A stretch of DNA of 64,000 nt from Buxus sempervirens (taxonomy: Eukaryota > Streptophyta > Magnoliopsida > Buxales > Buxaceae). The number at the start of each line of letters is the position of its first letter. Positions within the stretch are counted from its first letter, which is position 1. Below the pieces are notes generated by a model, which searched no databases, was not told where the DNA came from, and saw only the letters and a program-made list of their open reading frames with translations. The stretch is from the NCBI GenBank assembly GCA_947561395.2, contig OX387182.1, forward strand, positions 32,543,949 to 32,607,948, written 5' to 3'. Positions 456-26,976 of the stretch are shown here, one piece after another. The translations under genes were made by a program, and so were the position numbers.

Positions 456-2249
456 TGTGAGACATGGGAAAAATCAATTCAATGACTTCCTAAATCATCA
501 CATGGGATTGGTTAAAAACATAGAGTCGCCACCATTCTGTTTAGGTGTGAATGGACACCAAAATATCAAATAAGCACAAAAAGGCAAATTTAGGGTAAAA
601 ATAACCCTATTAAAAAAAACCAGAGATGGGTAAGGGGATTAGGTGAATAGGGGAAGGTGTTAGGCACCTCTATTCATCCACACAAGGTGGTTGCCAGGCA
701 TTGTTCATGTTAAAAATAAAGAAGGTTTGCTATAAAAATCACAAAAAATCACAAAAAGACAAAAGTGTATGGTTTTTTCATACGAACAGCCTGATTGATT
801 CAGAACTTTCAAATATGATCATACCATTCCTAGGTTTTCAGGATTAAAATAAAATTGAGATAAAAATCAGATAAAATCAATCTAAAGTGAAAACTTCAAA
901 AATCTGGCTTCAAGTTAAATCCTGGAAATCTAGAAAAATATGATTTTTATAAAATATTGCAGAATTGAACTTGAACAGTCCAGGACATAGATATAGCCCA
1001 AATTTCATATTAGATCAAGAAATCAAAACCAAAAATACCCACGTTGATGAAGAACATCAAAAGGGGAGAACTTAGACAGTAGGGTCTTCTCTCAAACATG
1101 AAAAATGACTCAAAAACCACATCATGAAACCCTAGAAGTTACTTTCAGGCTTCTGAATCCAGATCTATCATATTGATCATGATAGATCCAGGATCTTAGC
1201 CTAATATCACAAAAATCACTAAAACAGTGCTGTAGGTGCAAATATGTGAAAAATCCAAATTTTAGGAGAAAAAGTATTTCATGCTATAAACATCATGGAT
1301 TCATATGATTCATTCAGATTCAATCACAAGATCATATTAGCAGGATATTCAAAGCAGCCATATCTCACAGATTAGAGCACATGGGGGTTTACCCTACGGA
1401 TCCACCTGTTCTCTTTTCCCCTAGCTCTCTCTTCACGTTTTATAGCTAGAGAAGATTCTTGAAGTACTTAGAGATAGGTTTGGGTATACAAACACAATCA
1501 AAGGCCTTATTCTAAAAGAAAAGAGAAAAATAGATTATGGGGTTCTATTTTAGGGATCCACTTGTTCCCCTTTTCCCTAGCTCTCTCTTCACCTTTTATG
1601 GCTAGAGAGGAATCTTGAGGTACTTGGAGGCAGGTTTAGGAATACAAGTATAAACCAGGCCTTATTCTATAGCAATGGAAAAGATCCTATTATTTCTAGA
1701 ATTGAAGACAGAAAATAAAAGGGAAAAGGGACTTACCTGGATTGAGCAAGCAGAGCAGCAGGGATTCCTCTTTTCACTTGGAGCTCCTTAGACTTCAAAT
1801 TTCATGGCCTTTTGCTTAAGGATCTCACCTCTATTTATAAGCAAACCCAGGGGTATGGCTGGTCCAGAGGGATATAACATGATCCACCAGATTGGATTAA
1901 AAAATAGGGATAATGCCCATCCATGGCCAACAAGGATAATTTGAACAAATAAAAGAGATAATTCGCTCATCTAAAGAGATATTGGACTGAAGATAAGGCT
2001 CAAAAATCGAGCAAAGATCAAATTCACACAAATCTCTTGTGCTCGTATTTACATTGCGGGCAAGTGGTGCCCGCATTCTCAATACAGGTGCTGCATACCC
2101 GTATACAAATTTCGGGCGTGGTCAGCCCGTAGATACAATACGGGCAATGCTTAAATGATTGAATTTTATGCATTTTTGACCTGTTTTAAATCCCAATTAC
2201 ATGTTTTCAATTATTTTCTCATTTTGTAGTGCAATTTGGGGTGTCTACA
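456..2249 (-). repeat. 3' LTR of the giant Ogre-like element (LTR A)
   Basis: About 1.79 kb. On the minus strand it begins TGTAGACACCCC and ends CCATGTCTCAC(A). It matches LTR B (25177-26976) along its whole length with scattered substitutions. A TATA-like box (TTATAAATAG on the minus strand) lies at 1831-1840. A 28-bp-period palindrome array lies at 2041-2145 in the presumed U3. The conserved motif GGTGGCGACTC lies near the 3' end (about 522-533). Confidence 0.9.
2041..2145. repeat. Palindrome array 1 (in LTR A)
   Basis: Three 21-bp imperfect palindromes start at 2055, 2083 and 2111, with half-units at each end. Each has a CGGGC-like left arm and a CCCG-like right arm. Spacers of exactly 7 A/T-rich bases (2076-2082, 2104-2110, 2132-2138) give a 28-bp period. 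It lies about 105-210 bp inside the 5' end of the LTR (minus orientation) and about 200 bp upstream of the TATA-like box. Confidence 0.85.
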
Positions 2250-2595: not shown

Positions 2596-2699
2596 TGCCC
2601 GTATTTATATTACGAGCAGGTCATGCTCGCAATTTGAATACGGGTGCAACTGATCGTATTACCTTTGCGGGGGTCTCTTGCCCGTGTATCTTTTACGGG
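2596..2699. repeat. Palindrome array 2 (upstream of the mobile-domain cassette)
   Basis: Same design as the LTR arrays: about 20-21-bp imperfect palindromes starting at about 2611, 2639 and 2666, separated by 7-bp A/T-rich spacers, with half-units at both ends. It lies between the PPT and the antisense mobile-domain gene, on the 5' side of that gene. The equivalent array in the second copy is at 29567-29669. Confidence 0.8.
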
Positions 2700-4043
2700 T
2701 TTTAGGGTCCTTCTTAATCGCGATCTTGACTTTTCTTTCATGCTTGCTCGCATTTCGCCTTAATTTGCTTGCACCCGTAACCTCTTCTCCGGTCTTCGTT
2801 CTTCAATCTCTGACAGTGCACGACTTCGCCGGTGACAACTGTTCACTCCGGCAACCTTCATCTTCTCCAGCGTGCCTTTGCTTCTCCGGTGACCTTCTTG
2901 CTTCCTTGGGCGACTGTTCCCATTTCTTATTTCATTGCTACGACTGTGATTGTGCTTCCGCCTGTGGACACTCCTTGAAGCTCCGGTAGAGTAAGAGTTC
3001 CCAATGTGCTTGCCAAATTTTCTCCATTTCGACTGTACCGAGTGAGTGGCCGAAATCCCCAAATGCTTTGCCATTTCATTGAGCTACCAATTCTGATTTT
3101 TAAGAATTAACTTGTAATGCTTATGATATTCCATGCTCATTGTTCTGATTGTTCTTGATTTGATATGAATCCCCCATTTTGATGCTTTGTCTCTGCAAGA
3201 ATGAATTACCAATTCATGTTCAATCCATGCCCAATTTTCTGCATTTTTCAGTTATTGGACTACTGTGCGGACTTGTTGTGAAATGTGGATTTGGAGCAAT
3301 CATGTTCTGATTGATGCTCTGCTTTTCTTGCCAATGCATTTTTCGTGATTCTGATTTTTTTCCTACCAATGCATGCTTTCACAATTATAGCAAACTTTTG
3401 GATGTTCAATTCTTGCTTCCGGACTATTGCTTTAGGTCTTCTTGAAACTTTGATTTGTTCATGGGATGCTAGATGATTGCCCACCTATGCCACTTAGAAA
3501 ATTGATTTTGACTTGCTTGGATCTGCGCTGGAGGGGCTGCTAGGCCAACGATTTTGACTCCAAACAAAGCCGATCCTCAATCCAATTGACAACCATGATA
3601 GATTTCTGAATCTGTAATTGAATAAGCCTAAACTTGATGAGTATTTCTGTTACCACAATCCCAACACAAATAGGCTTGAATTTCTGTCCTAAAACCAAGT
3701 AAACTCAAATGATTAAGTATCTTTAAAAAATACAAATGAGAAAATTAAAGCCAATTTTTAACACATTTTTTTTGTCATATAAAGAGAATATACAAGAAGC
3801 ATGCACTTCTTATATAATTTCTCTATATACTTTCTTGGTTAAAGCAAAGACAAATAAAATATCTCAAGATAGAAAATAAGCTACTTCAGTTGACTCCTGA
3901 TTTGGTCGGGAGTTTCTGAAGCATTTTCTTCCATTCTCCATTTTTTCTTTTTCCTGCAAATCAAATAAACTTGGTTAAAATGAAAATCAAGCAATAAAAA
4001 TCTTAACAAGAATAATTAAACATTTCCCTGATTTGAACCGCAG
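2700..4043 (+). other. Probable promoter and 5' UTR region of the antisense mobile-domain cassette
   Basis: No conserved protein is seen. A CT-rich stretch (about 2770-2900) resembles a plant 5' UTR. A TATA-like TATAAAG lies at about 3777-3783; the second copy has TATATAAAG at about 30797-30805, followed by conserved sequence. Short open frames here (for example 2678-2989) are not conserved as protein in the second copy. The TATA box is only a candidate. Confidence 0.4.
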
Positions 4044-6845
4044 ATGGCCCGCATTCGATTAGTTTCTACGGATCCTGCTGATGAGCTCTCTTCCTCTAGG
4101 GTTCGGAGGGATCCCACAGATGTGGCATCTTCTTCGGGAGCAGCGAGGGATTCTGATTCTGATATCCCTGATCTTCCTTTTGGGGATTCGCGTGAGGCGA
4201 CCCCAGAGGTATACCCTAACCTTTCTGAAATTTCACCTCCTTCTTAAAATACTTCACCCTGATCCTTTTTCCTTCCAATTATTTCCTTAGCCAGTAGTTG
4301 AGGCTGAGATGAGGGCCGCAGAGGAGGCCGTAGAGGAGGCCGTGGCAGGGATGAGGCTCGGACTAGGGTTGAGGTCCCTAAGGCTGTTGCTGCACAGATT
4401 AGGGATACTGACCTTTTGCATGGCTTGAGGACTCATCCATCAGCTTGTATTAGGGCAGACATCCCTTTGGAGTATCTCTTGTCTCATTATCGAGGGAGCT
4501 AGGCCAGCTTTATTAGATTTCTTGGAGACTGCAGTTCAGCCTTTCGCTGAGAGCTAGGTTTGTATGGTTTTGGCCTCTTCATCACCATTCCGGATGTGCG
4601 CCTGGATTGAGCCCTTATTGCAGCGATGCTCGAGAGGTTCTTCCCAGAGACTTTGAGCTTCCATTTCCCAGATTTTGAGATTGGGATCCGGCCGTCCGAC
4701 TTCACACTCATCACAGGGATTAGGATGACTGGAGATATTATCCCTAAGATGGTGATGCCAGATGCTGAGGAGATTGCTTCCTATCTTGGATATATAGTGT
4801 TGCATCTGGAGGCATGGGATAGAGGAAGAGCTAGATTGTCTCTGACTTGGTTGAGAGAGACCTTCCGGAGGAGGCAGCTTGCTACCAGTCATTCAGCTTT
4901 TCCATTTGCCTTCCGCTTTATCTTCCTGTACATGATGGGCTCCTGCTTCTTCCCAGGGGACACGACTTCTGTCAGTCCTCATTTTTTGAGTTTATTGGGA
5001 GATCTGCAGCGAGCAAGGAGGTATGCCTGGGGCCCGCTTATTTTCAGCACCATTCTGGCTGGTCTACGCCGATCAGTTAGCGGCCTCTCTACCTCTCGAG
5101 GAGCCGGAGTTGGGTGCAGATTCTTCTAGTCCTTCTAGCAGGTGAAATATTTCTTTTCTCTTTCTCTTTTCTTTTTCTTTTCTATTCTTCTGACCCTTTT
5201 CTTCTTTTTGCAGTTCTTTGCTAGGGTTTATATTCCCTATTTCCGCCCTACCTCTACGATGCCAGAGGATACGTATCCTGTGGCTCGTAGATGGTGCCAT
5301 GTGGAGCACGACTCTGAAAAGAGTTGTCCTAGGTCTGCCCGGGCTCATCTCGACAGACTGTATCTGTCTGAGGTAAGCTTCTTTAATTCTTCCTTTTTCC
5401 CTTTCCTGAATCACATGTCTAATATTCTTCTTTCTGTTTTTCAGTTGTTTGTTCCCCAGATGGAGGACATTCATGAGGTGCTGGCCTTGCATGTGGCTAG
5501 AGACGATGCCTTTGCCCCTGACCAGAGACGTCAGCGCTACCAGTTCTTCATTGCTCAGATGGGCAGCATTTGGTACTGCGGTGAGCGCTTCTTTTATCAG
5601 CACATTGGAGTGCCTCGGATTCCTGCCATCCCACCAGATACTACTCCTTCTTTTCCTCCTATGCCTGTTAATCCTGCTCAGTTCCTAGATTGGATTGAGG
5701 CAGAGACATTTTTAGAGGAGGGTGACTATGATGCCTGGTTTAGGCAGGCTTCAATTGGGTGCCTCATGCCATCCATGCCTGTCCGTGGTGGAGTCACGGA
5801 GATAGGAGGGGTAGTGATCAAGGCTTACGATACGACGGTATGCCTTTCCCTCTTTGATCTTCTATTCTTATACTCTATTTTGACTTGGTATTTTCTGACA
5901 CCTTCTCTTCTGTTTTAGGAGGCTCAGTTGGCAGAGATCCGGTCTCGGTAGGTTGATATAGAGCACCAGCGGGATGCTGCTATTGCCGAGCGGGACGCCC
6001 TCTTTATTACCATTTCAGACCTCCGGGACAGCTTGCCAGGGCACAGGGCCAGGCGGGTCCTTCTGGTGCACAGGACCAGGCGGGTCCATCTCATACCTAG
6101 GTTAATTCTTTACCTCTTTCCATTCATGTTCTTATATCTGTTTATCCTATTTTGACTAAAATTTCTTTTCTTATTTTCAGGATGACACAGTTGGCCCTTC
6201 TTCACTTGCTTCATCACTGCCTATGCACCTTCATGGCGAGGTTTTCTTTGTGGCACAAGTGGAGTTTGTGACATCTCCTAGATCAGTAGAGGTGCCTGCA
6301 GCAGAGCCCGAGATCGAGGCTGAGGTTGCACCTACTGCTGTCCCTACTACTGAGGACGTGCCAAAGTCTACTCCAGCACCAGAGACTGCTCTTGATGTGC
6401 TTGCTGAGATAGATGTGGAGTCAGCCGGGAATGCCGCTGTGGTGGAGCCTACTGATGAGGCTATGGTGATAGAGGAGGCTGCTACTGAGCCTGTAGAGCC
6501 TGGACCTGATACTGATGCTCCTAGGGCGTCTGTTCCTGTTGATCCTGCCATGGAGCCTGCTGTGACAGAGGAGGTGCCTACTGCCGAGCCTGTGAGTGAA
6601 CCAATCCCTATGGATTCTGATACCGAGTTAGGGGGATATGTAGATACCTCGGGGTACGTTCCTCCTGATCATCCCACTGCTGGCCTTGTGCCTTTATATA
6701 TGTGGTATGATATCAGTCTATTTTGAGCAGGATGACCCGTAGTACAGCTTGTCACTTTGTGGAGCATGTCTTCGAGCGCCGGCGGCCTTCAGGCAGTGGT
6801 CGAGGCAGAGGACATGGTCATGGCCGCAGGGGTAGACCTGGATAG
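4044..6845 (+). pseudogene. Antisense cassette 1: plant mobile domain (PMD/MAIN-like) gene, multi-exon, decayed
   Basis: This lies opposite to gag-pol, between integrase and the 3' LTR. Exons with GT-AG borders can be read as 4044-4208, 4291-5141, 5214-5372, 5445-5837, 5919-6100 and 6181-6726; the same borders occur in the copy at 31082-33998. The exon around 4600-5100 encodes the block LERFFPETLSFHFPDFEIG followed by RPSDFTLITGIRM, which fits the plant mobile domain (PF10536, aminotransferase-like). The C-terminal part is acidic and Pro/Val/Glu-rich. A shifted frame after 6726 reads into an RG-rich tail ending at 6845 and is conserved in the second copy. It is damaged: stops in the PMD exon (for example TAG in place of a Trp codon near 4500) and a changed frame in exon 2, where the second copy has an RG-rich stretch. 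PMD proteins are nuclear silencing-related factors that recur in TEs; a role here is inferred. Confidence 0.75.
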
Positions 6846-7060
6846 ATAGATTAGATTAGGATATCACATGTATTTGTATTTTGACAAACTGATGTACACT
6901 TCCATATATATAAAAGACATTTGATTCATTTTTCTTCATATATGCTCTTTTTTCTTTTTTTCTTGCTTCTATTGCATGATACATGTTAAAGCAGGGACAA
7001 GTGAAACTTGGGAAAGCATAAAAATTAAAATTGCCCATTTTTTGCATTTTTTCAAAGAAA
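6846..7060. other. Spacer between the two antisense cassettes
   Basis: AT-rich sequence with a TATATATAAAAG stretch near 6904-6915, which could belong to the poly(A) region of cassette 1. The second copy preserves it (33999-34219). No coding signal is seen. Confidence 0.5.
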
Positions 7061-7190
7061 CAGTATTTATATTACGAGCAAGCTGTGCCTGTAATGTTAA
7101 TGCGGGCGCACTCTGCCCGTAATTTTTTTACGGTCACAGTGTGTCCGCACTCTCTATACGGGCACGCGACACTCGTATTATAAATACGGA
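7061..7190. repeat. Palindrome array 3 (immediately upstream of cassette 2)
   Basis: Four 21-bp imperfect palindromes separated by 7-bp A/T-rich spacers, with half-units at each end. The arms are variants of TACGGGC and GCCCGTA. The array ends 23 bp before a TATA box. The matching array in the second copy (34220-34376) has five palindromes, so copy number varies between elements. Confidence 0.85.
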
Positions 7191-7212
7191 TTTTATTGCT
7201 TTTTTGAATTTT

Positions 7213-7221
7213 CTATATAAA
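7213..7221 (+). promoter_or_regulatory. TATA box of antisense cassette 2
   Basis: CTATATAAA lies 92 bp before the ATG at 7313 and directly downstream of palindrome array 3. The same box and its surroundings are conserved at 34399-34407. Position and sequence fit a plant core promoter on the plus strand. Confidence 0.65.
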
Positions 7222-7312: not shown

Positions 7313-9000
7313 ATGGCTTCCTTCGCCCCGTTCTTTTCTGTTGATGAATCTCCTCCTGCAAGACAACTTGTTAGATCAAAACCTCCTAATTTCACCAGGT
7401 ATAATGTCGTGGATTCCTTCTATGATAGGTAGGTTAACTCCATGACCCTTGATGAGGAAATTCGCTGGGATTCCATCCATTTAGGCCACATCCTACACAT
7501 TCCTAAAATTCCCTTTAAGTGGGAAATCATTGAAGCTTTGATTGGACACTGGGTACCTGAATTAAATCTCTTCCGTTTTGATGACAAATAGATGACTCCT
7601 CCCATTGAAGAAATTTAAACCATCTTTGGCCTAAGGTTTTCTGAAAAAGTTGTGAACCCGCCCCTAAAGCCTAGCTACAAAGAGGAGGCATCCACCTTCT
7701 TGGGTATAGGGAAGGACTTAGGAAATTCTGACACACTGCTGACCTTGTCCAAGACCTTTTTGACTGAAAAACTTCAAAGGGGTGAGGACAAGGATGCCCG
7801 GTTTAATGCTTTGACTTTGATAGTAGTCAACCAGTTGCTCTTTCCACAGGGTGACGACCAGGTTGACTTGGCTCTCATCTCAATTGTTTGCCAGGTTAGG
7901 GAACGTGAGAGATTGGCCCCTATGATCTTGGCAGAGATATACCAGGCCCTGACTGACTGCTATTTCAGAAAGAAGAAACGCTTCCTTGCATGTGCCCCTA
8001 TGCTACAGGTAAAAGAGCAATATTTTTTTTTCTTTTTCTGCTCTTCTTTTTTTTTTCCTCTTTTTTTTTCTTTTGCAATAAATTAAAATACTCCTCTTTT
8101 CTACAGCTTTGGTTGCTTGACCACCTGAGTCAGGTTGAAGAGATAACTTGCCGCTTCTTTCCAAGATTGAAAGTTCCTGTTTTGATGAGCAATAGGGGGT
8201 GTCCTAACAACCAAGGCGGCAAGCCGGGCTGGTTCACTTTCTTGGGTACTCTCCAGGATGATCAGGTGAGATGGACTGGCACTTATCAGCCCAATCCAGA
8301 GACAGTGATCAGCTTCAGAGATAGGAACTTTCTGGTCCTAGCAGGCTTGAAATCTGCTGTTCTCTATCTTCCTTTGAAGGTTTTTTGGCAGTTTGGAGCA
8401 ACCCAGGGGATCACAATCCCAACTGGCTATAAGAGCTTCGTAGGGCCACTTACATAAGCCACCATGGGGCTAAATGCTTGGTTAATGAATGAGTGGTCCT
8501 ATGTTCGCTTTCTGTGGGGTCCAGTCTTTTCTAAATCCCATGTGAAGGACTATCATTTCTGGACCAAAGAGCATGTGCAAAGTCATGCCCCAGTACCAGA
8601 GGATCCTTCTGCAGTTCTTCCCCCTACTTATGAGGATATCCTGGAGTCTGAAAGGGCAACCCACAAGCGGCTTCAACAAATATGGGTACGAGAAGCACAA
8701 GAGCTCAGGATAAAGGGTATTGATCTGGAGGGGCAACTTGAAGAGCAGAGGTCTTGCCGTATTGCCATGGAGAAGAAACTTGAGGAACAAAGACAGGCTC
8801 GTCGCTTTGAAGTCCGAGCGATGCGGAAGAAATATCAGGATTCCTTGGTTGACATTAGGGCTTTGAAGATCAAGCAATCTCTTTCAGATGAGATCGTCTC
8901 CTTTTTTAGCGATCCAGATGTAGAGGGAGCTTCTGGAATCATTACAACTCAGGCTGCTCGGATTAAGGAGCTTGAGGAGCAGTTAGGGGGTAGGGATTAG
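7313..9000 (+). pseudogene. Antisense cassette 2: DUF7745-like TE-associated protein, two exons, decayed
   Basis: The ATG at 7313 opens MASFAPFFSVDES. The frame runs to 8008, where CAG|GTAAAAG is a good donor; the intron ends in TTTCTACAG at 8106, and exon 2 runs 8107-9000. The N-terminal block (an alpha-helical stretch, then VPELNLFRFDD and MTPPIEEI) resembles the plant TE-associated family now called DUF7745. This is from memory of the pattern, not a search. The last 140 or so residues (after about 8600) are rich in E, Q, R and K with heptad-like spacing and probably form a coiled coil. In-frame stops at 7430, 7589, 7616 and 8455 make it a pseudogene. It lies antisense to gag-pol, so its intron would not be removed from the retroelement's genomic RNA. 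Confidence 0.65.
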
Positions 9001-9973: not shown

Positions 9974-12235
9974 TCAAGGAAAGTATCTCTTTACTGCATT
10001 AGAGTTAATTGGCTCAGGAAAATCTTTCCCATCCATTTCTGTTAGGATGAGAGCACCCCCTGATAGGACCTTTTTGACAACATAAGGTCCTTCCCAATTT
10101 GGTTTGAATTTTCCACGAGGGTCTTCCAAAAAGGGTAAGATTTTCTTTAATACTAAATTTCCTTCTTGGAAATTTCTCGGCTTCACCTTCTTATTGTAAG
10201 CTCGGGCCATTCTTTTATGATACAATTGGCCATGACAAAGCGCTTTCAACTGTTTTTCTTCTATCAAATTGAGTTGATCATGTCTTGACTGTATCCATTC
10301 AGCTTCTTCTAATTCAGCTTCCATTAGCACTCTTAATAAAGGGATTTCTACTTCCACTGGTAAAACTGCTTCCATCCCATAGACTAAGGAATACAGGGTT
10401 GCCCCAGTAGAAGTCCGAATTGAGGTTCTGTAGGTGTGTAGTGCAAGTGGCAGCATTTCATGCCAATCTTTGAAACTCACTACCATATTCTGAATGATCT
10501 TCTTTATATTTTTATTTGCTGCTTCCACTGCACCATTCATCTTTGGTCTGTACGGAGCTGAATTGTGGTGGGTGATCTGAAACTGCTCACACATCTTTCT
10601 CATATCTTTGTTCTTAATATTCGAAGCATTGTTTGATACTATAGCACTTGGCAAACCATAGCGACAAATGATGTTGTGCTTCAAGAATTTCAGAACATGG
10701 CTACTTGTGATATTTGCATACGAAGCTGCTTCTACCCACTTGGTGAAATAGTCGATTGCTATAAGTATAAACCTGTGTCCATTCAATGCCTTTGGAGAGA
10801 TCATTCCAATGACGTCTATGCCCTACATGGAGAAGGGCCATGGAGATGTCATGTTGTGCAATTCACTTGGAGGTGCATTCTTGTTATCAGCATATACTTG
10901 GCACAAATGACACCTTTTAACATGTGTATAGCAATCGTGCTCCATTGTCGACCAGTAGTATCCCAATCGCAAGATCTTCTTAGCAAGCATGTGCCCGTTC
11001 ATGTGGGGTCCACAAACTCCTCCATGTATAGTTTCAGCTAACCTTTTTGACTCAGTCTTGGAAACACATCTGAGTAGGATATCCTTGTGTGATCTCTTGT
11101 ACAACTGCCCACCACTTAGTAAAAACTGACCTACCAACCTCTGTATTGTTCTTTTCTCCATAGAAATGACATTTTCTGGCAAACTCTGATCATTTAGGAA
11201 GTTCTTAATGTCTTGAAACCATGGTTCTTCTTCTTCTGGTGTTTCTTCTAGAACAAGGCAATAATCAGGTTCATCTCTGACTTCAATTTCTAGTGGTCTA
11301 ATATCAACACCTTCTAGCATACTAACCATTGATGCCAATGTTGCTAAAGCATCTGCGAATTGGTTCTTGGCCCTTGGCATATAGTTGAAGGAAATTCGAG
11401 TGAATTTGGTGCTTATTTCTTCCAAATACTGGTGATAGGGGATCAATTTGTGATCCTTGGTTTTCCATTCACCAGTTGTTTGGAAGATGATAAGACTCGA
11501 ATATCCATATACGTCAAGTTCCTCCACTTCATGGTCTAAGGCTGTTTGTAACCCAATTATGCATGCTTCATATTCTGCAATATTGTTTATGCATTGGAAC
11601 CTCAACTTTACTGTGATTGGGATGTGTGCCCCATATGGCTTGATCAAAACTGCCCCTATTCCATTTTCATTCATGTTGGCGGCCCCATCAAAGAACATTT
11701 GCCAAGAGCTTTCACTTTCCTCTTCTTCAGTAAACAGGATTGCCTCATCAGGAAAGTTGGTCTTTAAGGGTTGGTATTTTGGTAGAGGATGTGCAGCTAA
11801 GTGATCAGCAATGGCTTGACCCTTAATTGCCTTCTGAGTGATGTATGTGAGGTCAAATTCAGAGAGTAATAACTGCCACTTTGCCGTTCTGCCTGTTAAG
11901 GATGGTTTCTCAAATAGATACTTTAAAGGGTCTATTCGGGATATCAATAAGGTGGAATGACTAAGGAAATAATGCCTCAGTCTCTGAGTTGCCCATACTA
12001 AAGCACAACAAGTCTTTTCCAAAGGGGAATACTTTGCTTCATATTCTGTAAACTTCTTGCGTAGGTAGTAAATCACCCTTTCCTTTCTGCCTGTATCGTC
12101 ATGCTACCCCAAGACACACCCCATGGATGTCTCCAAAACTGACAAGTAAAGGATTAGTGGTCTTCCTGGAGTTGGTGGTATTTGCACAGGTGGGTTCAAT
12201 AGGTATTCCTTTATTGTGTCAAAGGCTTCTTAGCA
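9974..12235 (-). pseudogene. Element 1 pol: RNase H, archaeal-type RNase H and integrase
   Basis: The frame runs from the edge of the nested solo LTR (12235) to 9974. In order it has the RT-linked RNase H (YEAKYSPLEKTCCALVWATQ), a second RNase H (WQMFFDGAAN, AEYEA), the integrase HHCC zinc region (HMNGH ... CHLC), the integrase core (AIDYFTKW, NGAVEAANK) and a C-terminal domain (NWEGPYVVKKVLSGGALIL). Stops: TAA and TAG soon after the insertion point, and TAG at 10823 where the copy at 62023 has Trp. Two catalytic residues are lost: the integrase second Asp is Asn (codon 10631-10633), and the third acidic residue of the second RNase H is Tyr (codon 11501-11503, VYGYSS instead of VYGDSS). The gene is dead. 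Confidence 0.9.
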
Positions 12236-12240
12236 GTCGT

Positions 12241-14565
12241 TGTAACGCCCCGGATCCGTGTTGTTCAATAAAGATATAACGCGTCTCACGGAGTGTTAGG
12301 TAAGGATCTTTAAACATTTATGATCGCTGGATAATCATCTAACTAAAACATATCAGAGTGCACAAATATATAGTAGCTATGAATTCAATAATTAAAACTT
12401 AACTAGGATTCAAATAGTACAACCCCAAATGACTTTATTACACCTCAATCATTCAATTTATTCAAAATTCAATTCAAAATAACCTACGAGTCCTAGGGAA
12501 TGTAATAGTAGTCTTCCTCCCTATAAGTCTCAGTCAGATCTACCCCAATAGTCGCCTCACCTCGAGTATCTGAAAACAAACAAAAACAATAGAGTAAGAT
12601 ACGAATATCTCAGCGAGTAGCATATGCATGCAAAAAAAGTTAACAGCAGTTCAAATTATGCATTGATAAACATTCCGTACGAATAAGCAACTAATGAAAT
12701 TTCCACATTTAAAACTAAAACCAATTAATCAGTTCTAATCACATTTTCGATTCAATGCGGCAACACATCGATTGGTCAATGTCATGACTATTGTTAAGTT
12801 GATAAATTAAACATTCCAAGTAGACACTCCAAACCTCCATGTACACAATTCCGGCCTACTCAGGGTTTCGGAAACTCTGAAATGACAGCCTACTCAGGGT
12901 TTCGTCATCCAATGCCGGCCTACTCCTCGGGTTTCGGCATTGACAACCAGGCCTACTCAGGGTTTCTAGCTGCTCTACACCGGTCGTGGCAACACACAAG
13001 GCCATGCAATTTCAACAACCAACAATAACATTTCATTACTAAGCTTAAGCATGGATCCAGGACAAGCTAAACCAAAACAATAAATCATCGTATAATCTCA
13101 ATTCCAACATCAAAATAAAACAATACATTTCACATCATGTATAACTCATCACAGTTCACCACCTGTCCCTCTGGACCAAACAGTACCTCAAGTACTTCCA
13201 GTATTTTCCCAATTTTATAACACATGCCATTTGAAAATAAAACTCAGTTATTCACACCAAGAAAATCTTTACAATACATTCAGAATTTTCCAAACAAGTG
13301 AAACCAGACTTTAATAATTTCTCAATCAAAACAGTGTATAAAACAAAGAGGAAACTAACTAGGAACTCCTAGTGTTTTGGTACCCAGTACATCACCTACA
13401 AATAACCTAAACTTAGCCTTGGGAGCCTTTAAGAATTTCCACTTAATTTTCCTCTATTAATTGAATAGGTAATATAGGTTCCAAAGTCCCAAAAAAGTGA
13501 TTGGTTAAGTGGTTTAACCCTCAAATCATCAAAAACCACTTGATTTAGTCAAAAATTACAATTCGGCAAGTTTATTAGACCATGCGCTCACCTCTTGAAC
13601 TGAGCGCAAGGTCGGCGGATAGTTCTAGGGTTGAAATTGGGGTATGCGCCTACTCGAATTCAAGTGAGCGCGAAGTGGGCGTGAAGTGAGCGTGAAATGC
13701 GCGCATAGGGTTTAAGTGCGCACGAGCTGAGCGCCAAGTGGGCCCGAGCTCGGCGGATAGTATACATTTAACTTGCGCCTACTACCCGAAGTGAGCGCAA
13801 GTGAGCGCCATGTGGGCGGATGCTCACTGAGTTTTCCGACTCTCTGTTATTTCCAGATCTCTGACTCTGGCCGATCTTTTTCGGTCTGTAACTATTCCAG
13901 TAGTCTCCTAATATCCCCAGAATACATCCAAAGTAGGTTTGAAATTAATCTAAACATATTTATATTTATCCTACATTCAGTTATAATTCAAACTCATGCT
14001 CGGACGAAGTTCTTCCAGAAAACTCAGAAAACACTCATGCATCAGAATAAATTCACGAATAAACTCAAATCCTCAGTTTTAAAACAATGCTACTCACCTC
14101 TTGCACGCTTATATCCCAGCACAAGGATATTCCAAACCACGGCCGATCACCAACTGTACGGCTGCATGCCTGCGAATGTTGCCGAAATGATCCCCTGTTT
14201 GCAAGTGGAAAAGCCTTATGAAATCTGGATCACCGACACCACAAATCCAGTCGGAGCTCTCACTGTTCTCGTCTCTTCCCCGCGAAACCCTAATCGCCAC
14301 ACCAGTAGCCGCAAATCACCAAATGTCTTCAGTACCAAAAGTATACGATACAAGTATCCGAAACCAAAAACCTAATTTCCCCTTTAGTATATATACCTTC
14401 CATACGTATTGCCGCTCGACAACCTTTGAAAATCATTGATTCCATGTACGCTCGTCCACCGAAATCCCTACTTATACCCGCATATACTTAAGTTAATATG
14501 TACACATAATAAATTTTAATAAGTAATAAATAAATAAAAGCTTAGCAAAAAATTGGGGTTTTACA
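12241..14565 (-). mobile_element. Solo LTR of a Tekay/Del-like element inside the RT gene
   Basis: 2,325 bp, TG..CA termini, flanked by the perfect 5-bp duplication GTCGT (12236-12240 and 14566-14570). It starts TGTAACGCCCCGG on the plus strand, the reverse complement of the end of the LTR at 50603-52915, so it lies in minus orientation. Both share the unusual repeated motif AAACCCTGAGTAGGCC (here about 12870-12970 reversed; there 52195-52305). No internal region or second LTR is present, so it is a solo LTR left by recombination. Confidence 0.92.
12870..12972. repeat. Short repeats (CTACTCAGGGTTTC) inside the solo LTR
   Basis: Four copies of a motif close to GCCTACTCAGGGTTTC, about 20-45 bp apart. 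The LTR at 50603-52915 has the reverse-complement set at about 52190-52305. This is a family-specific LTR subrepeat. Confidence 0.8.
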
Positions 14566-14570
14566 GTCGT

Positions 14571-15927
14571 CATTTCAGACCGTCGGGTTATTCTTTCTCA
14601 GAAGCTTGAAAATTGGTTCATAGATAGCATTGAGTTGTGCTATGAACCGGCTTATGTACTGAATCCTTCCAAGAAAGCCACTAACCTCCTTCTCCGTTCT
14701 ACGTGAGGGCATTTCAATGATTGCTTTGGCCTTAGCTGGGTCAATCTCAATTCCCCTTCTGCTTACAATAAATCCCAACAATTTTCCTTATGTAGCCCCA
14801 AAGACATATATTGCAGGGTTAAGCCTTAGACTATATTTCCTGAGCCGGTCAAACACCTTCTTCAAGTTGATCAAGTGGTCTTCTTCTCCACATGATTTGG
14901 CTATCATATCATCCACGTAGACCTCCATCTCCTTATGGATCATATCGTGGAATAATGCTGTCATGGCCCGCTGGTAGGTTGCCCCGGCGTTCTTAAGCCC
15001 AAATGGCATGACAGTGTAGTGGAAGGTACCCCAAGGTGTAATGGAAGCCGTTTTCTCTTGATCTTCCTTAGCCATCTTAATTTGATTATACCCAGAGAAA
15101 CCGTCCATGAATGAGAACAGGATATGTACAGCAATGTTGTCCACCAAGATGTCGATGTGGGGAAGTGGAAAATCATCCTTTGGGCTTGCCTTATTTAAGT
15201 CTCTATAATCCATGCACATTCTGACCTTTCTGTCCTTCTTTAGTACTGGCACTATATTGGCTAGCCATTCAGGGTATGTGGAGAGTGCCAAAAATCCCGC
15301 TTGGAATTGCTTGACCACTTCATCTTTGACCTTTAATGTCCACTCAGGTTTCAACCTTCTCAACTTTTGCTTAACTGGTTTAACATCTGGCAGAATTGGT
15401 AGCCTGTGCACAACCATGTCAGTGTCTAACCCTGGCATATCTTGATACGACCATGCAAATACATCTTCATAATCTGCCAAGAACCGTGTCATTTCATCAC
15501 GTTGCACCTCAGATAGGCATGTCCCAATCTTCACTACTTTTGGGTCATCTTCGGTCCCTAGGTTTATTGATATGGTCTCCTCAATATTGGGTTGGACCCC
15601 CTTTTTATGATGTTCCAATTGATATGTGATTTCTTTTGGAGGGTCTTCTTCTTCGACCTCGGTCTCTTCCTCAACCCCCATTAGGTCAAAGTCGAGCTCG
15701 AGGTCGAAGTCATACTCAACTTGATCCAATTCCGTTTGCTTATAGGGTTCATAAGTGGTTTGGACCTTTTTGAAAAATTTAATTTTTCTAAAAATGGGCA
15801 AATCTTTTTGTGTTTTTTGAGAGCCTTCTAAGAAATCGTTTTCTGAAGACGAAGGCTCATTAAAACCTTCAGGAAAAGGGCATTCCACTAATGGAGCTTT
15901 TTTTTGGAAGCCATGTTTGTTTGCCAA
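14571..15927 (-). pseudogene. Element 1 pol: reverse transcriptase
   Basis: Ty3/gypsy RT. Visible motifs are VRMCMDYRDLNKASPKDDFP, FSFMDGFSGYNQIKM, MPFGLKNAGATYQRAM and the catalytic YVDDM at about 14905-14919, followed by the connection domain (RRGIEIDPAKAKAI, FLGRIQYISRFI). A TAA at about 14788 interrupts the frame where the copy at the right end reads Ser. The gene is broken at 14570 by the nested solo LTR and continues at 12235. The N-terminal 120 or so residues are an acidic linker. Confidence 0.92.
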
Positions 15928-16781
15928 ACAAACGCGGCTTCAAAAGTAAGGGGAGTTTCCTCCCAATTGTTCAATATAAAAGAATCTGGGGCAGGGGTAC
16001 AAGCCTGCTCCCCAAGCTCAGGGTCAGCATCCGAAATCACCAGTACTGGGTGAGTTGCATCCCTTGCTTCTGCTGTAGAGCTAGTCCTAGATGGAACTTT
16101 TACCACAGCCCAGTCAATGAAGGGTAGCTCATTTGCTCCTTCTTCTTGGTTGCCTTCAGTTATGGCAAAAAAGGCTCCAACGTTCTCAGAAAAATCCTGC
16201 TCCTGTTCTGCCCGTGGCTCAGGCTCACCCAATGCTTGTGAAGGTGAAGGTTGAACATATGGTTGCAAGGTTGAGGACTTGGGTTTCTGGAATGGGTTTA
16301 TGTTATAATATGGGGTTGGGACTGATCCTGGGGTGGAGACAGTTGAATCATATGAGAAAGCTTCGGAAAAGTTTCCCTGATGTGAGGGAATTTTATGTTT
16401 TTCATCTCCTTCTATCTTCTCCAATTTCTTGGCTTGGACCCCAATCCTGCTCTAAGGACCAGCTTCTTAACCTTACCGGTTCTATCCTTCCTTGTAGGTT
16501 AACCCCCAGACCTTTTCCCGGGTGGAAATTGTACTTTCCCGGCACTTTCTTGACCATCCTCTCAACACAAGTCATTTTCTTTTCTTTTTCCTGATACCCC
16601 CAGCTATAAAATTGACAGTTTCAAACTGGAAAGAGTGAAATGTCATCTTGTCTGCAGTCATTTCCATGTTTATGTAGGGTACATCAGGGGACCACATGGG
16701 AGGAACCAAGTTTTCAACTAGGACTGTAATCACCTTTTGCCCTCTAATATATTTAACTCTTTAATAGAGGGTAGATAGTAT
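15888..16781 (-). pseudogene. Element 1: protease C-terminus and protease-RT linker
   Basis: Just after the nested LTR, the minus strand reads LPSIKELNILEGK, which continues the protease open frame interrupted at 20203. Then follows a Pro/Glu/Ala-rich linker (open frame 16424-15888) with no recognised domain. Long linkers between protease and RT are usual in Ogre-like elements; in Ogre an intron has been described here, but no splice sites are claimed in this copy. Several stops lie at about 16450-16730. Confidence 0.7.
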
Positions 16782-19689
16782 TGTGCGCACCCGATTTCTG
16801 TTGCACGACTAGGCGCACGCAAAACGATGCGTGCCTCGGGATTTGTTTGGAGTCGCCACTGCCTGATGGGGTGCAGGCAGACACCTGGGTGCCTAAGTTC
16901 TTCTACTAAGGCTTGGTCTGCGGCTTGAGATTCTAAGTAGGTTCTCGGTTGCGGTCTGGGGAAGTCCGTAGACACCCCAGTCCACCCCATCAAGTGACGG
17001 GTCCCATAGGTTTCCCTGGTTTGAATCAACTCAGTTGGTCTCTCACTCACCCGATTGCTAATCCAGCATTCAATTTTGGTTAAGTCTGATGGGACCGCCA
17101 AAGCGGTGTGGGTCCCTTTACTTGATTTTATCTTCTTATTTTTGAATGAAGTGAGTCTCTTTGGGTGGGCCCCATTGGAAGATCCACGGTATCCCTGGTG
17201 GGCTTGCTTAAGCCCACATACCCCCTAGTGGGCCTCAGTCTAGCCTGAGAGGCCCTTTGGGCTTTGGTTCAAATGAATTGATTTTTATTTGAAGTTTAAG
17301 TTTGATTATTTAAGTGGATTTCCATGCCAAAAGTGAGCCGGGATTGCTTTGTGGGCCCTTGAGTGGGCCACATAGTTGGTTTCCAAGTAGTTTTGATTAT
17401 CTCTCTTAATCTGTGCCAAAATGGGCCAAGATCTGGGCTTGGGCCCTTTACCTGGGCTTGGGGTTGAAAGCCCAAGTCTTCATGAGTTAGGGTTTGGAAA
17501 CCCTAAAATTGGTTTGATTTAATGGGCTTTAGCGGGCCCGATCGGCCCTACCTGCAGTCTTGGCCAAACCAAGCCTAGATCTAAGCATGCATGTTGCCCC
17601 AGTTGGGCTTTGATGGGCCTCACAGGGTCTGGCCCACTTAATTCTTTTAATTGTCTTATTTAAGTACAAATAAGTTGGTCGGGCTTGGTGGGCCCCGTTG
17701 GAAGGCCCACCGAAAATCGATTTGGACCGGGTCGGTCCATGGCCCATCTTGGGTTTCCGGGTGACCCGGAAACCCTTCTGGATTGCTTGGATTGGTCAAC
17801 AAAGCACAAAAATAACAAAGATCATCAAAAATAGCAAAAATGCAATCTGGCAGTGTAGCCGGCCTGAGATGCCGGTTGCACACAGGGCTCTGTGTATCCG
17901 GTATCTTTAGCCGAGTACACATGGGTTTCAGTTGATCCGGCCTGAGTTGCCGGATCAACCCACAGAAGCCTTTTCTCGGATTTTTGCATTGGGGTTGGGT
18001 TTCTGGGTCTTCTAGGATGTTCTAGGGATTGTGTGGGCTCCTATGTGAGCCCACAGTGGTTCAGGTGAGGCCCTTTGGCTCTCTTGGAGGTGTTTTGTGA
18101 ATCAAAGGGAAAAGATGGGGCTGGGATTTGCCTCCTCCTCTTTTCTATCCCCAATCATTGCACAAACAGGGATTCAAGTATCCCTATTCCGGCTTCTTTT
18201 TCCCACACAAACACATCATTAATTTTGCATGAAGCAACAAACAAACTAAGGCATCCCTAAGCATGTTGCAAGCTAAAATTGAACTAAGTAAACAATGGAA
18301 TATGCAGAGCACCTAGGTATATCTTCAATGCATGCAAAAGTAGACATATCCATGAAATATGTACAAGGCCGAATGGGTCTTTTTTATGACTCAAAACAGT
18401 GACTAAACCGAAGTGGAATCATGGTGTAAACACACAAAATAGTCGGTAAAAGTAGATGTTGACATGATCCCTGAAAATGGTAAAACACATACCTTAAACA
18501 TTGATTAATCCATGCATGCATACAACATCAACTTAGACCATGTGCAAATGAAAACTAGAACATAAACTCAATGTGCAACATCCTATCAATGCAGATTATT
18601 CATTTATTCTAACAAAGGACATTTAAAGAAGAGAACATGGGGGATTACTTCAAGGGGTACATTGGAAAAGGCAACCATGGGGGAATATGCTCCCGCCTTT
18701 GAATAAGACAACCAATAACAGCAAACATTATGTTAAGGAGCCATTAGACCATGCTTAAAATATCATGCTTAAAGTGGAACATTCTCATCCTAGAAACCGG
18801 AGATATGCTCCCTTTACCAAGGGAATTTTCTCATGCCGAAAATGATGAACACAAGTGGAGGGAGAAGACATCAACATGCTGGGAAAGAAACGGGAAACAT
18901 GCTAGAGAAGAAAATAACACTTTAACATGCTTGAAATGAGCCTATTTTCATTTATGCTGAACAACAAGTTGTGGGGAACATTACTTGGGGGTTATTAGAA
19001 CTTGGAGTGATGTATGGAACTCCCTTGAAGCAAAACCGGTGCTGAAGTCTTACCTTTTGCACCACCAACAGCAGCCTATCCTCCTCTTGGTTGTGAGAAA
19101 ATGGAGAAGAAGAGGGAAAAGAAGGGTTGGATGGTCTTGAGATCAATTTGGGTGAGCTTTGGGGTGAGTGGAAGTGACCAATGGAGGTGCACAAGAGGGG
19201 GCAGCCATGGGAGAGTTTTGGGAGAGATGGGAGAAAGTGGGAGAGATCCCCAAAAAAAATCAGCCGACCCTTTGAAATGTGCTAAGATTGCTTTTTTATA
19301 TTGCCTAACTAAAAAAGAATTATTCTTGCACTTCATCACCAAAACCCTAATCCTTTCATTTCATGCCACCTTTTTTTTAAGAAAAGCCATGATTGCTTGA
19401 ACGAATTCTCCACATGGAGAATTCGTCCAATCATTTATTTTTTATTTTCTTTTCTTCTTTATTTATTTAATTCATTTGCTTTTATTATTATTTTATTAAG
19501 ATCTTTGTTTTAGGTTTTGGATGCACATGCATCTTTTAATTTCTATTTTTTTTCTTTTATTTTAAATACCTTAATTAGATTTTTAGCAAAAATATTATTT
19601 TTTAATTCAAAACCTTTCATTTTGCTGCTCTTTCTTCACTGTTTGCCACGTGTGCAGATTTTCAGAAACTTCAACTGCCCACAACTCAC

Positions 19690-20040
19690 TCGTCTAATAT
19701 CCGATTTTAGCAAACTTAGTGGCGTTGGAATTAGTGTGAGATTCTCTATCCACTGAATTTCAGTTTAGCAGCAAATTCGAGTTTTTTTAGCAGAAGTGCC
19801 GGGCCGCGTCCGGGAGCCGATTTTGCTATATTTCCTTATCCGGGACTCCGATTCCAGCAAACTCAGTTGCGTTGGAATCGTGTCAAAATGCTCTTTCTGC
19901 TGGTATCAAATGAGGTAGCTGATCTGGGGTTTAGCAGAAGGTCAATTTCTGCTTTTCTCAGATTTGACCAGTCCATAACTTCTTCATCTGGACTCGATTT
20001 GAGCAAACTCTGTTCCATTAGAACCGTATCGAAATCCTCT
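19690..20040. repeat. Degenerate tandem repeats (about 150 bp) inside the 3.4-kb solo LTR
   Basis: A block resembling GATTTnAGCAAACTnnGT followed by CGTTGGAAT appears three times, around 19695, 19848 and 19993, with similar flanking text. These look like old tandem duplications in the U3 of the LTR. Confidence 0.6.
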
Positions 20041-20089
20041 TTCCAATGGTGGGAAGCATGTGACTGATTTGCACCAGATAAAAAAAGTC

Positions 20090-20150
20090 AACTTTTTGAC
20101 TTCTCAAGTTTGACTTTCTCAAGTTTGACTTTCTCAAGTTTGACTTTTCA
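20090..20150. repeat. Short tandem repeat (GACTTTCTCAAGTTT) in the 3.4-kb solo LTR
   Basis: About three and a half copies of a 16-bp unit containing TTGACTT(TC)TCAAGT, about 50 bp from the LTR terminus. Confidence 0.75.
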
Positions 20151-20202
20151 ATTAAAATTTCATTTTCTGCATTTTGGGAGGTGCAAAAATGAGGTGCTTA
20201 CA

Positions 20203-21260
20203 AGTATAGCCCTAGATGTATGAATCCATGGCCTTCCTAGGAGTAGGTTGAAGGCCGCCGGTATATCCATCACTTCAAATGTGATGTTAAAGATATACGG
20301 TCCAATAGTGACCGGCAGTTCAACCTCCCCTAGGGAGTGTATTTTAGAGCTGTCAAAAGCTCTTATAATTCTCCCATTTTGTTTGATTTTATTTTGCTCC
20401 AGACTGAGCTTTACAAATGTAATTAACGGGCAGACATTCAGAGCCGACCCATTATCAATCAAGACCCGGGCTATCATGCAACCCTTATTGAGCACCGCTA
20501 TGTGCAAAGGATCAACATGATGGTACCCTGCTGGGCTGATCTCGGTTTCAAAAAAAGTTATGACATTGTGGGATAAAATCTGCCCAACCATCTTTCTTAG
20601 TTGGTCTGGTTCAATATTTTTAGGCACATGTGCCCCCTGAAGTACCCTTAACAGAGAGTCCCTGTGTTTTTCAGAATTCAACAATAATCCCAGAATTGAG
20701 ATCTGGGCAGGGACTTTGTTCAACTGCTTGACAACATTGAACTCACTCTTTTTTATTAACTTAATGAGGTCAGCAGCCTCACTGTCAATTACCTGAGAGG
20801 CATCTTCCCCTACCTTGGCCTTTCCTTTATTTTTCTCATTCTCGGCTTCTTCCCTTTCTTTCTTTGTCTCCTTTTGTTTTTCTTCCACACCTACACATTT
20901 TCCTGACCTCATCATGAGGTTCACTTCTTTCTTGCTTTCTGCCTCAGCTGCAGGGAATGTGATGGTGAAGGCTTCATTGTAGTTCAATGGTACAGCCAAT
21001 TCAGAGTAAGAAGGCTTAGGGACATTTATCACTAATGGAGGAAGTTTGGACTTGGATGATGAAGTCTGAGTAGGAAGAACATCTACAACCAATGGTGGAA
21101 GTTGTTTTGGTTGAGGGGTTATAGAAGCATTGAGATGGTCACAGTTTATGACCACTGGCGGTTTTAATGGAATGGGTGAAGTGAAGGTGGATGGACTGCA
21201 ATTGATTACCAGAGGTGGTTTTGCATATTCAATTGGGCCATGAGAGAGGAGGCCTGGTCC
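20203..21260 (-). pseudogene. Element 1: aspartic protease region
   Basis: The open frame 21155-20160 ends with a retroviral-type aspartic protease: active-site motif LIDNGSALNV, and LLGRPWIHTSRAI near the end. The nested 3.4-kb LTR splits the gene directly after that motif; the frame resumes at 16781. Upstream is a Lys/Glu-rich spacer (KEREEAENEKNKGKAKV). A frameshift near 21250 separates it from the gag frame. Confidence 0.85.
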
Positions 21261-23620: not shown

Positions 23621-23776
23621 GATTTTTTTTTTTTAGATTTTTTTTTGTTTCACATTTTTATTAAATTTTTTTTTTGAAACATTTTATTCAAACTCATTTC
23701 CCTTTAGCATCATTTTAAGGTTGAAGGAATAAGATTTAGTGAAAAAAAACTGTTTAGATTTGAATTTTTCGAGAAA

Positions 23777-23908
23777 ACCGCATATACAGTACGGTCTGGC
23801 CTTGCCTGCATTTAAATTGCGAACGAGCCGTGACTGTATAGCCAACACAGGCGAGCCCTACCCGTATAACCAAATACGGGCGAGCCCAGCCCGTATTATA
23901 ACTGCGGT
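23777..23908. repeat. Palindrome array 4 (retroelement 5' leader)
   Basis: Four 21-bp imperfect palindromes with 7- or 8-bp spacers (for example arms TACGGGC and GCCCGTA around 23876-23896), with half-units at the edges. It lies between the tandem repeat and the PBS. Confidence 0.82.
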
Positions 23909-26558: not shown

Positions 26559-26568
26559 CTATTTATAA
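26559..26568 (-). promoter_or_regulatory. TATA box of LTR B
   Basis: TTATAAATAG on the minus strand, about 410 bp into the LTR. The same box is in LTR A (1831-1840), LTR C (28798-28806) and LTR D (58900-58908). It would drive the full-length retroelement RNA. Confidence 0.6.
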
Positions 26569-26766
26569 GCAAACTCAGGGGTATGGCTTGTCCAGAGGGA
26601 TATAACATGATCCACCAGATTGGATTAAAAAATAGGGATAATGCCCATCCATGGCCAACAAGGATAATTCGAAAGAATAAAAGAGATAATTCGTTCATCT
26701 AAAGAGATATTGGACTGAAGATAAGGCTCAGAAATCGAGCAAAGATCAAATTTGCACAAATCTCTT

Positions 26767-26873: not shown

Positions 26874-26976
26874 AATGCTTAAATGATTGAATTTTATGTA
26901 TTTTTGACCTGTTTTAAATCCCAATTACATGTTTCAATTATTTTCTCATTTTGTAGTGCAATTTGGGGTGTCTACA

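What the first reader, a model, noticed from the sequence alone, without database searches (positions are those of the whole stretch)
2041..2145. 28-bp-period palindrome arrays: a shared structural module of the Ogre-like elements
Nine arrays (2041-2145, 2596-2699, 7061-7190, 23777-23908, 26767-26873, 29011-29114, 29567-29669, 34220-34376, 59100-59213) share one design: 21-bp imperfect palindromes (TRCGGGC, 7 variable bases, GCCCGYA) separated by 7-bp A/T-rich spacers, so the period is 28 bp. The central 7 bases and spacers vary freely while arms and spacing are held, which points to selection on dyad symmetry or phasing rather than simple recent tandem duplication. They are GC-rich islands in AT-rich DNA. 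I know of no described element feature with this layout. Possible roles: binding sites for a dimeric transcription factor, nucleosome phasing, RNA hairpins, or a protein-DNA scaffold.
Basis: partly seen in the sequence, partly recalled or inferred. Interest (0 to 1): 0.87.

Follow-up and report, generated by a model that had tools for sequence, protein, structure and literature searches.

The report
Phased operator-like arrays in giant retrotransposons
Old copies of a giant plant jumping gene carry short, strictly spaced arrays of mirrored DNA sites in their control regions, including beside the promoter of an extra gene that reads backwards, which looks like one shared switch for the element's opposing genes.

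Summary
The nine arrays are real and far beyond chance (25 sites, 0.06 expected). The host is an Ogre/Tat-type Ty3/gypsy retrotransposon on the MINUS strand; its PMD and DUF7745 genes are antisense genes between pol and the 3' LTR. Arrays sit in the LTR U3 (103-104 bp from the LTR start, 192-205 bp before a conserved TATA box), 22-23 bp before the TATA box of antisense ORF2, 5' of antisense ORF1, and in the leader. Arms are no more alike within arrays than between them; spacers slightly are. Between LTR lineages A and C the array is the most diverged stretch, with arms kept better than the interior. No arm covariation, no general extra folding. Best reading: operator arrays for a sequence-specific dimeric protein shared by sense and antisense promoters, analogous to VANC target arrays. 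The binder is unknown; the element's own PMD protein is the boldest candidate. No relatives outside the window could be reached.

The parts
2041..2145 (-). U3 array of the 3' LTR of element A: 4 units GCCCGTA-N7-TACGGGC
   Evidence: 104 bp inside the LTR, 202 bp before TATA in sense
2597..2700 (+). array just inside the 3' LTR of A, 5' of antisense ORF1 (PMD gene): 4 units
   Evidence: no TATA[AT]A match before 3778
7059..7191 (+). promoter array of antisense ORF2 of A: 5 units
   Evidence: TATATAAA at 7214
23776..23909 (-). array in the leader of A between PBS and gag: 5 units (one core of 8 bp)
26769..26873 (-). U3 array of the 5' LTR of A: 4 units
29011..29115 (-). U3 array of the LTR of element B: 4 units
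29567..29670 (+). array 5' of antisense ORF1 of B: 4 units
34218..34378 (+). ORF2 promoter array of B: 6 units (one more than A)
   Evidence: TATATAAA at 34400
59100..59203 (-). U3 array of the LTR of element C: 4 units
456..2249 (-). 3' LTR of element A (TGTAGACA...TCTCACA in sense)
   Evidence: 96% identical to 25177-26976; ends checked; possible 4-bp target duplication GCGC
25177..26976 (-). 5' LTR of element A, followed in sense by PBS-like TGGCGACTTTGCTGGAGA
27415..29219 (-). LTR (3') of element B
57662..59306 (-). LTR (3') of element C
4044..6723 (+). [quoted passage not shown] the extent is inferred, the domain match covers only 4611-5126
   Evidence: PMD E 5e-16; splice-like sites shared by A and B
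31330..33872 (+). antisense ORF1 of B; the PMD match lies in 31330-32160
   Evidence: PMD E 6e-14
7313..9000 (+). antisense ORF2 of A: DUF7745 with weak PMD similarity (match in 7619-8083 only), broken; extent inferred
   Evidence: DUF7745 E 6e-10, PMD E 4e-4; ATG at 7313
7214..7221 (+). TATA box of antisense ORF2
   Evidence: a further TATAAA at 7179 lies in the last unit
1834..1839 (-). TATA box of the LTR (also 26562-26567, 28801-28806, 58903-58908)
9977..22519 (-). gag-pol region of element A: gag, RT, RH, second RNase H, integrase, with a nested insertion at about 12241-14563

Best explanation
The arrays are cis-regulatory operator arrays of an Ogre/Tat-type LTR retrotransposon. Each unit is an inverted pair of half-sites (GCCCGTA / TACGGGC) around an AT-rich 7-bp centre; four to six units stand in phase every 28 bp, so that half-sites alternate every 14 bp. 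A sequence-specific, dimerising DNA-binding protein occupies the array cooperatively and sets the activity of the nearest promoter: the LTR promoter for gag-pol, and the separate promoters of the antisense genes (DUF7745 gene, and by inference the PMD gene). One factor would thereby co-regulate both strands of the element. Shown: the arrays, their design, their fixed position next to two kinds of TATA-box promoter, and loss of interior similarity while the arms persist. Inferred: protein binding, dimerisation, direction of the effect (activation or anti-silencing seems likelier than repression), and the identity of the factor.
For: Design held across non-homologous arrays whose interiors are close to composition-only similarity. 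LTR arrays lie 103-104 bp from the LTR start in 4 of 4 LTRs and 192-205 bp before a conserved TATAAATAG/A. ORF2 arrays end 23 bp (A) and 22 bp (B) before TATATAAA, 2 of 2 copies. Between LTR lineages A and C the array holds the most diverged 60-bp bins (0.38 and 0.37); cores differ at 16/28, spacers at 8/20, arms at 10/56, flank 235/1517 (arms against interior p 7e-4, interior against flank p 5e-8). After insertion the arms decay faster than flank (two LTRs of A: 6/56 against 53/1688, p 0.01), as expected for CpG-bearing sites, so their long-term persistence suggests upkeep while elements were active. Outermost positions of terminal half-sites, which have no neighbour, are relaxed: 9/18 match against 52/62 for internal ones. 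The main PMD exon shows 16/5/28 changes at codon positions 1/2/3 and intron-like stretches shared by A and B, so it was a real gene.
Against: No arm-arm covariation in either frame. Arms of A and C diverge at about the flank rate (10/56 against 235/1517, p 0.58), and arms of A and B likewise (27/182 against 298/2434, p 0.30), so the case rests on contrast with the interior and with post-insertion decay, the latter known from six changes in one LTR pair. No TATA box is near the ORF1 array, and I saw none by eye near the leader array. TATA-like strings also occur in AT cores (7179, 34366, 29016). Three element copies and four positional classes in one window; first cores of the arrays of A are alike (p 0.016) and spacers slightly more alike within arrays (p 0.04), so the arrays are not independent. 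Chain ends were set by eye. No binding protein is identified.
Confidence: 0.66

Rival explanations
1. Narrower form of the best explanation, a self-encoded anti-silencing or autoregulation module: the antisense PMD (or DUF7745) protein itself binds the arrays, as VANC proteins bind motif arrays of VANDAL transposons.
For: Both antisense genes belong to PMD-type families and stand behind arrays; [quoted passage not shown] abstract). PMD proteins MAIN/MAIL1 are needed for expression of genes sharing a promoter motif (PMC7156037, passages).
Against: Element C keeps the LTR array but no PMD/DUF7745 block was found in it. The passages read leave open whether PMD proteins bind DNA. The reported motif CATGCAGTTT is not the array motif. 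PMD structure model useless (pLDDT 36).
Confidence: 0.3
2. Narrower form of the best explanation, host factor only: sites for a host transcription factor, exploited by the element as Tnt1 exploits defence-induced factors through its BII boxes.
For: LTR position before TATA; array kept in C without the antisense genes; [quoted passage not shown]
Against: Does not by itself explain arrays at an antisense promoter and in the leader, nor the fast turnover.
Confidence: 0.38
3. Ordinary tandem repeat born once, copied around the element and decaying, without function.
For: Shared first unit among arrays of A; spacers slightly more alike within arrays (p 0.04); unit number 5 against 6 between A and B; no covariation; A-C and A-B arms diverge no less than flank.
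Against: Arms changed fastest after insertion in the one LTR pair at hand, yet are the part shared between arrays; spacing 67 of 71 exact; fixed position in 4 of 4 LTRs.
Confidence: 0.17
4. RNA or single-strand DNA hairpins in the transcript (packaging, termination, small RNA precursor).
For: All 8 strands folded, from 7 of the 9 arrays, beat dinucleotide shuffles, z -3.7 to -8.9; ORF2_A folds better than arm-keeping controls on both strands (0 and 1 of 200 controls as good).
Against: The other 16 of 18 strand-array combinations do not clearly beat arm-keeping controls (best 15 of 200 controls as good); no covariation.
Confidence: 0.08

Closest known systems
VANC target arrays of VANDAL transposons, Arabidopsis (PMC5735166, PMC10398659; passages read)
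   Same: Short motifs at high density in noncoding upstream and intron regions of a transposon, often tandem, fast evolving, bound by an element-encoded protein.
   Different: VANC21 motif YAGTATTAY is arrayed in one orientation; here half-sites alternate in orientation with strict 14-bp phase, in an LTR retrotransposon, and no binder is shown.
Tnt1 BII boxes (PMC3316501; passages read)
   Same: Boxes in an LTR promoter that bind host factors (repeated, before the TATA box: recalled).
   Different: As far as I recall not in internal regions or at antisense promoters, and of unrelated sequence.
[quoted passage not shown] PMC6317226 passages)
   Same: Tat-clade elements with antisense extra ORFs and tandem repeats; PMD in 57% of Ogre elements.
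   Different: Those repeats are called family-specific, origin and function unknown; no palindromic 28-bp design or placement in LTR, leader and antisense promoter was seen in what I read.
Su(Hw) site array of Drosophila gypsy (recalled, not looked up)
   Same: Cluster of binding sites for one protein in the leader of a Ty3/gypsy element.
   Different: Host zinc-finger sites, one cluster, not palindromic.

Membership tests
Tat clade, Ogre/Retand type Ty3/gypsy retrotransposon | second RNase H between RH and INT | tested here: met
   10826-12103 minus: RT_RNaseH 3-83, RVT_3 138-256, Integrase_H2C2 350-404 (the last just under its cut-off); this order is stated for Ogre and Retand
Tat clade, Ogre/Retand type Ty3/gypsy retrotransposon | extra ORFs, PMD frequent in Ogre | tested here: met
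   PMD and DUF7745 antisense; PMD in 57% of Ogre elements
Tat clade, Ogre/Retand type Ty3/gypsy retrotransposon | RT phylogenetic placement in Ogre | not tested
   only a homology list, 120 best of 7305, no lineage names
Tat clade, Ogre/Retand type Ty3/gypsy retrotransposon | PBS complementary to tRNA-Arg | not tested
   PBS-like TGGCGACTTTGCTGGAGA seen; tRNA-Arg stated for Ogre, the match itself not computed
VANC-type anti-silencing target array | dense motif repeats in noncoding parts of the element | tested here: met
VANC-type anti-silencing target array | rapid divergence of arrays between related elements | tested here: met
   A-C; B-C; between A and B only spacers exceed flank
VANC-type anti-silencing target array | bound by an element-encoded protein that lowers DNA methylation | not testable with these tools
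   needs protein and methylation data
VANC-type anti-silencing target array | motifs in one orientation in a VANDAL transposon | tested here: not met
   alternating orientation, LTR retrotransposon
simple tandem repeat | units of one array more alike than units of different arrays | tested here: inconclusive
   not so for arms (p 0.90, 0.96) or cores (p 0.13), weakly so for spacers (p 0.04)
base-paired RNA element | compensatory changes between arms | tested here: not met
   ten permutation tests, p 0.08 to 0.99

The most novel reading that the evidence does not exclude
A retrotransposon-encoded PMD-family protein, made from an antisense, spliced gene, binds the 28-bp phased arrays and controls or de-silences both its own promoter and the LTR promoter of the opposite strand. 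PMD-lacking members such as C would be served in trans. This would give the PMD family, whose domain function is called unknown in the papers read, an ancestral role as sequence-specific regulator of its own element, and would be a second, independent VANC-like system, in an LTR retrotransposon.
Probability: 0.27. Interest if true: 0.88.

Novelty: new variant of a known kind. Interest (0 to 1): 0.62.

Why it matters
Ogre-type elements fill large parts of many plant genomes (recalled), and why Tat elements carry antisense genes and repeat arrays is stated as an open question (PMC11963269 discussion). A common, phased operator beside sense and antisense promoters gives that question a testable form: find the protein that binds TACGGGC half-sites. 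It also offers a route to the unknown function of the PMD domain (as in MAIN and MAIL1), and would be a second case of transposons using fast-evolving target arrays.

Tried and rejected
Tried without result: own-genome search (genome search own: none answered); array patterns in viral contigs (0 hits) and genome contigs (one hit, L001, in a Smithella bin; the stretch seen is GC-rich and I judged it chance, without a test); PMD relatives by the search for homologous proteins (5287 candidates, none at E 0.001), PDB sequences (none), viral contigs (93 pattern matches, none a relative); RT in viral contigs (none); PMD structure from a two-row alignment (mean pLDDT 36, so no fold search was made).

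A Gal4-like CGG-N11-CCG and the plant VOZ site GCGT-N7-ACGC (both recalled) were considered: the first belongs to fungal factors, the second has another spacing. The motif CATGCAGTTT seen at MORC1 occurs only in part, as CATGCAGT, once in the window, inside the B array; taken as chance.

Weak points: chains were set by eye; the counts pool all nine arrays, orthologous ones included, while searches used five of nine (one LTR of A, INT_A, ORF2_A, LEAD_A, LTR_C). One search stopped with an error after two of four comparisons; only those two are used. In one search the first ORF1 exon was counted one base out of frame; one search gives it in frame. One search used LTR ends one base short for A and B; one search corrects the distances to 103-104.

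Full report
OBSERVATION. A search for TRCGGGC-N7-GCCCGYA with up to two mismatches gives 25 hits, 24 in the nine arrays and one isolated at 16950, against 0.06 expected. A looser score in both frames shows no tenth array: 35 of 37 AT-core units and 28 of 32 spacer-type units that reach 11 of 14 lie inside the nine arrays. Laid out half-site by half-site, each array is a chain R-7-L-7-R-7-L, R being GCCCGYA and L being TRCGGGC. Steps between half-sites are 14 bp in 67 of 71 cases, 13 in 3 and 15 in 1.

FRAME. In my chains, set by eye, all nine arrays begin with R and end with L, giving 40 units R-core-L and 31 spacers. By a strict limit of one mismatch, 6 of 9 begin with R and 6 of 9 end with L; the other terminal halves have two or three mismatches. 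The R-L interval is 17% GC and 7 long in 39 of 40; the L-R interval is 50% GC and 7 long in 28 of 31. At terminal half-sites the outermost base matches in 9 of 18 cases against 52 of 62 in internal ones (p 0.009), while the two bases next to the AT core match in 18 of 18. So the AT-centred dyad seems basic, and the GC side matters mainly where a neighbour is present, as if neighbouring dimers touched.

HOST ELEMENT. Self-comparison and a check of the ends give LTRs at 456-2249 and 25177-26976 (96% identical, element A), 27415-29219 (B) and 57662-59306 (C). The gag, RT, RNase H, second RNase H and integrase domains found in A all lie on the minus strand. The flanks suggest a 4-bp target duplication GCGC, and a PBS-like TGGCGACTTTGCTGGAGA follows the 25177 end in minus orientation. 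Element A therefore reads from right to left; its 5' LTR is 25177-26976. The Plant mobile domain gene (about 4044-6723; domain match at 4611-5126, E 5e-16) and the DUF7745 gene (about 7313-9000; match at 7619-8083, E 6e-10, with PMD at E 4e-4) are antisense genes between pol and the 3' LTR. The second RNase H between RH and INT fits Ogre/Retand, and PMD is reported in 57% of Ogre elements (PMC6317226, passages). I did not build an RT tree. The window is from a flowering plant: an L-ascorbate oxidase piece at 44087-45067 is 77% identical to proteins of Telopea, Pistacia and Carya.

THE ANTISENSE GENES WERE REAL GENES. Copies A and B share intron-like GT..AG stretches at 4209-4290 and 5142-5213 of A. 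The main PMD exon shows 16, 5 and 28 changes at codon positions 1, 2 and 3, of 172 each (third against first two p 4e-4). The stretch 5310-5700 shows 14/131, 13/130 and 25/130 (p 0.02). The short first exon shows 4, 9 and 10 of 55 each, and 6160-6723 shows 32, 25 and 36 of 185 each, without a clear bias.

WHERE THE ARRAYS ARE. In sense orientation the LTR arrays begin 103-104 bp from the LTR start and end 192-205 bp before a conserved TATAAATAG/A in 4 of 4 LTRs. The ORF2 array ends 23 bp (A) and 22 bp (B) before TATATAAA, about 100 bp before the ATG at 7313 in A. TATA-like strings also lie in some AT cores (7179, 34366, 29016), so a TATA match alone is weak. The array at 2597 (A) and 29567 (B) lies 5' of the PMD gene, with no TATA[AT]A match before 3778 (A) and 30801 (B). 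The leader array at 23776 lies between PBS and gag; I saw no TATA box beside it by eye. Thus at least two promoters, one on each strand, share one design, and a third is likely.

NOT JUST A DECAYING TANDEM REPEAT. Using five non-orthologous arrays of the nine, arms are 70.5% alike within arrays and 72.8% between; cores 42.5% and 38.6% (composition alone 35.2%), spacers 41.3% and 33.7% (25.3%). Permuting units among arrays, only spacers are more alike within arrays (p 0.04); cores p 0.13, arms p 0.90 and 0.96. Between the LTRs of A and C the array is the most diverged part of the LTR (60-bp bins 0.38 and 0.37; the next highest, beside it, 0.30; the rest at most 0.26): cores 16/28, spacers 8/20, arms 10/56, flank 235/1517. 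Arms against interior p 7e-4, interior against flank p 5e-8. A5-C and B-C agree on arms against interior (p 3e-4, 3e-3). Between A and B spacers change faster than flank (21/69 against 298/2434, p 7e-5), while arms (27/182, p 0.30) and cores (12/91, p 0.75) do not differ from flank. Between the two LTRs of A, which diverged after insertion, arms change fastest (6/56 against 53/1688, p 0.01), and the arms-to-interior ratio differs from that of A-C (6:2 against 10:24, p 0.04). CpG sites present in either copy are kept in both more often in arms than in flank in A3-C (7/10 against 5/18), A3-B (6/9 against 5/15) and INT A-B (6/9 against 4/12), hardly so in A5-B (5/8 against 9/17), and not in ORF2 A-B (8/11 against 3/4); the numbers are small. 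Sites that decay fastest when free, yet persist between lineages whose interiors are replaced, were most likely under upkeep while the elements were active. Against this stands that A-C arms diverge no less than flank (p 0.58).

NO GENERAL BASE-PAIR SIGNAL. Arm-arm symmetry does not exceed permuted pairings in either frame (ten tests, p 0.08 to 0.99). RNA folding beats dinucleotide shuffles (8 of 8 strands folded, from 7 of 9 arrays, z -3.7 to -8.9). With arms kept and core and spacer letters shuffled, only ORF2_A stands out, on both strands; of the other 16 of 18 strand-array combinations the best has 15 of 200 controls as good. This is what protein half-sites would give; the ORF2_A exception is unexplained.

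ORIGIN. The first cores of arrays are alike (4.0 of 7 against 2.7, p 0.016), among the arrays of A and not with C, so the arrays of A probably descend from one array copied within the element; inner units turned over, and B has six ORF2 units where A has five. No homology to the block from the array at 2597 to the end of ORF2 was found in C: A-C homology stops at 2592/59653 and resumes at 9005/60487. C thus keeps its LTR array apparently without its own PMD gene, which means either a host factor or service in trans.

MECHANISM. Best reading: an operator array bound by a dimerising, sequence-specific protein that co-regulates the LTR promoter and antisense promoters. The closest working analogue is VANC: VANC21 binds YAGTATTAY motifs at high density in noncoding parts of VANDAL21, and these often tandem targets vary strongly between related elements (PMC5735166 and PMC10398659, passages). 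Whether the binder here is PMD, DUF7745 or a host factor is open. [quoted passage not shown]

NOVELTY. Six literature searches on repeats, palindromes, Ogre, U3 and extra ORFs gave no paper that, from its listing or the passages read, describes this design; I looked inside only some of the papers listed. The held library lacks most subscription papers and all preprints, so this is a limited statement.

LIMITS. All evidence comes from one window with three decayed copies; the own-genome search did not complete.

Noticed in passing
59653-60487 against 2597-9005: Element C shows no homology to the antisense PMD/DUF7745 block of A, from 5 bp before the 2597 array to the end of ORF2, as if the block were a cassette bounded by an array.
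   Followed up: partly
26109-26421, 1381-1693, 28350-28661: A tandem duplication of about 156 bp inside the LTRs of A and B; the C LTR aligns with a gap there.
   Followed up: no
23033-23629: 48-bp period tandem array near the 5' end of gag in A.
   Followed up: no
29060-29067: CATGCAGT, part of the promoter motif CATGCAGTTT linked to MAIN/MAIL1, occurs once in the window and falls in the B array. Post hoc.
   Followed up: partly
53269-57663: A second Ty3/gypsy element (gag, protease, RT, RNase H, integrase, Tf2-1-like SH3) into whose pol end element C is inserted.
   Followed up: no
16950-16970: One isolated palindrome of the same type within the pol region of A.
   Followed up: no
44087-45067: Piece of an L-ascorbate oxidase (multicopper oxidase) gene, 77% identical to Telopea.
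   Followed up: partly
7059-7191: The ORF2_A array folds better as a whole than arm-keeping controls on both strands (0 and 1 of 200), unlike the other arrays.
   Followed up: partly
spacers of the A and B arrays: Spacers change about 2.5 times faster than flank between A and B, cause unknown.
   Followed up: partly
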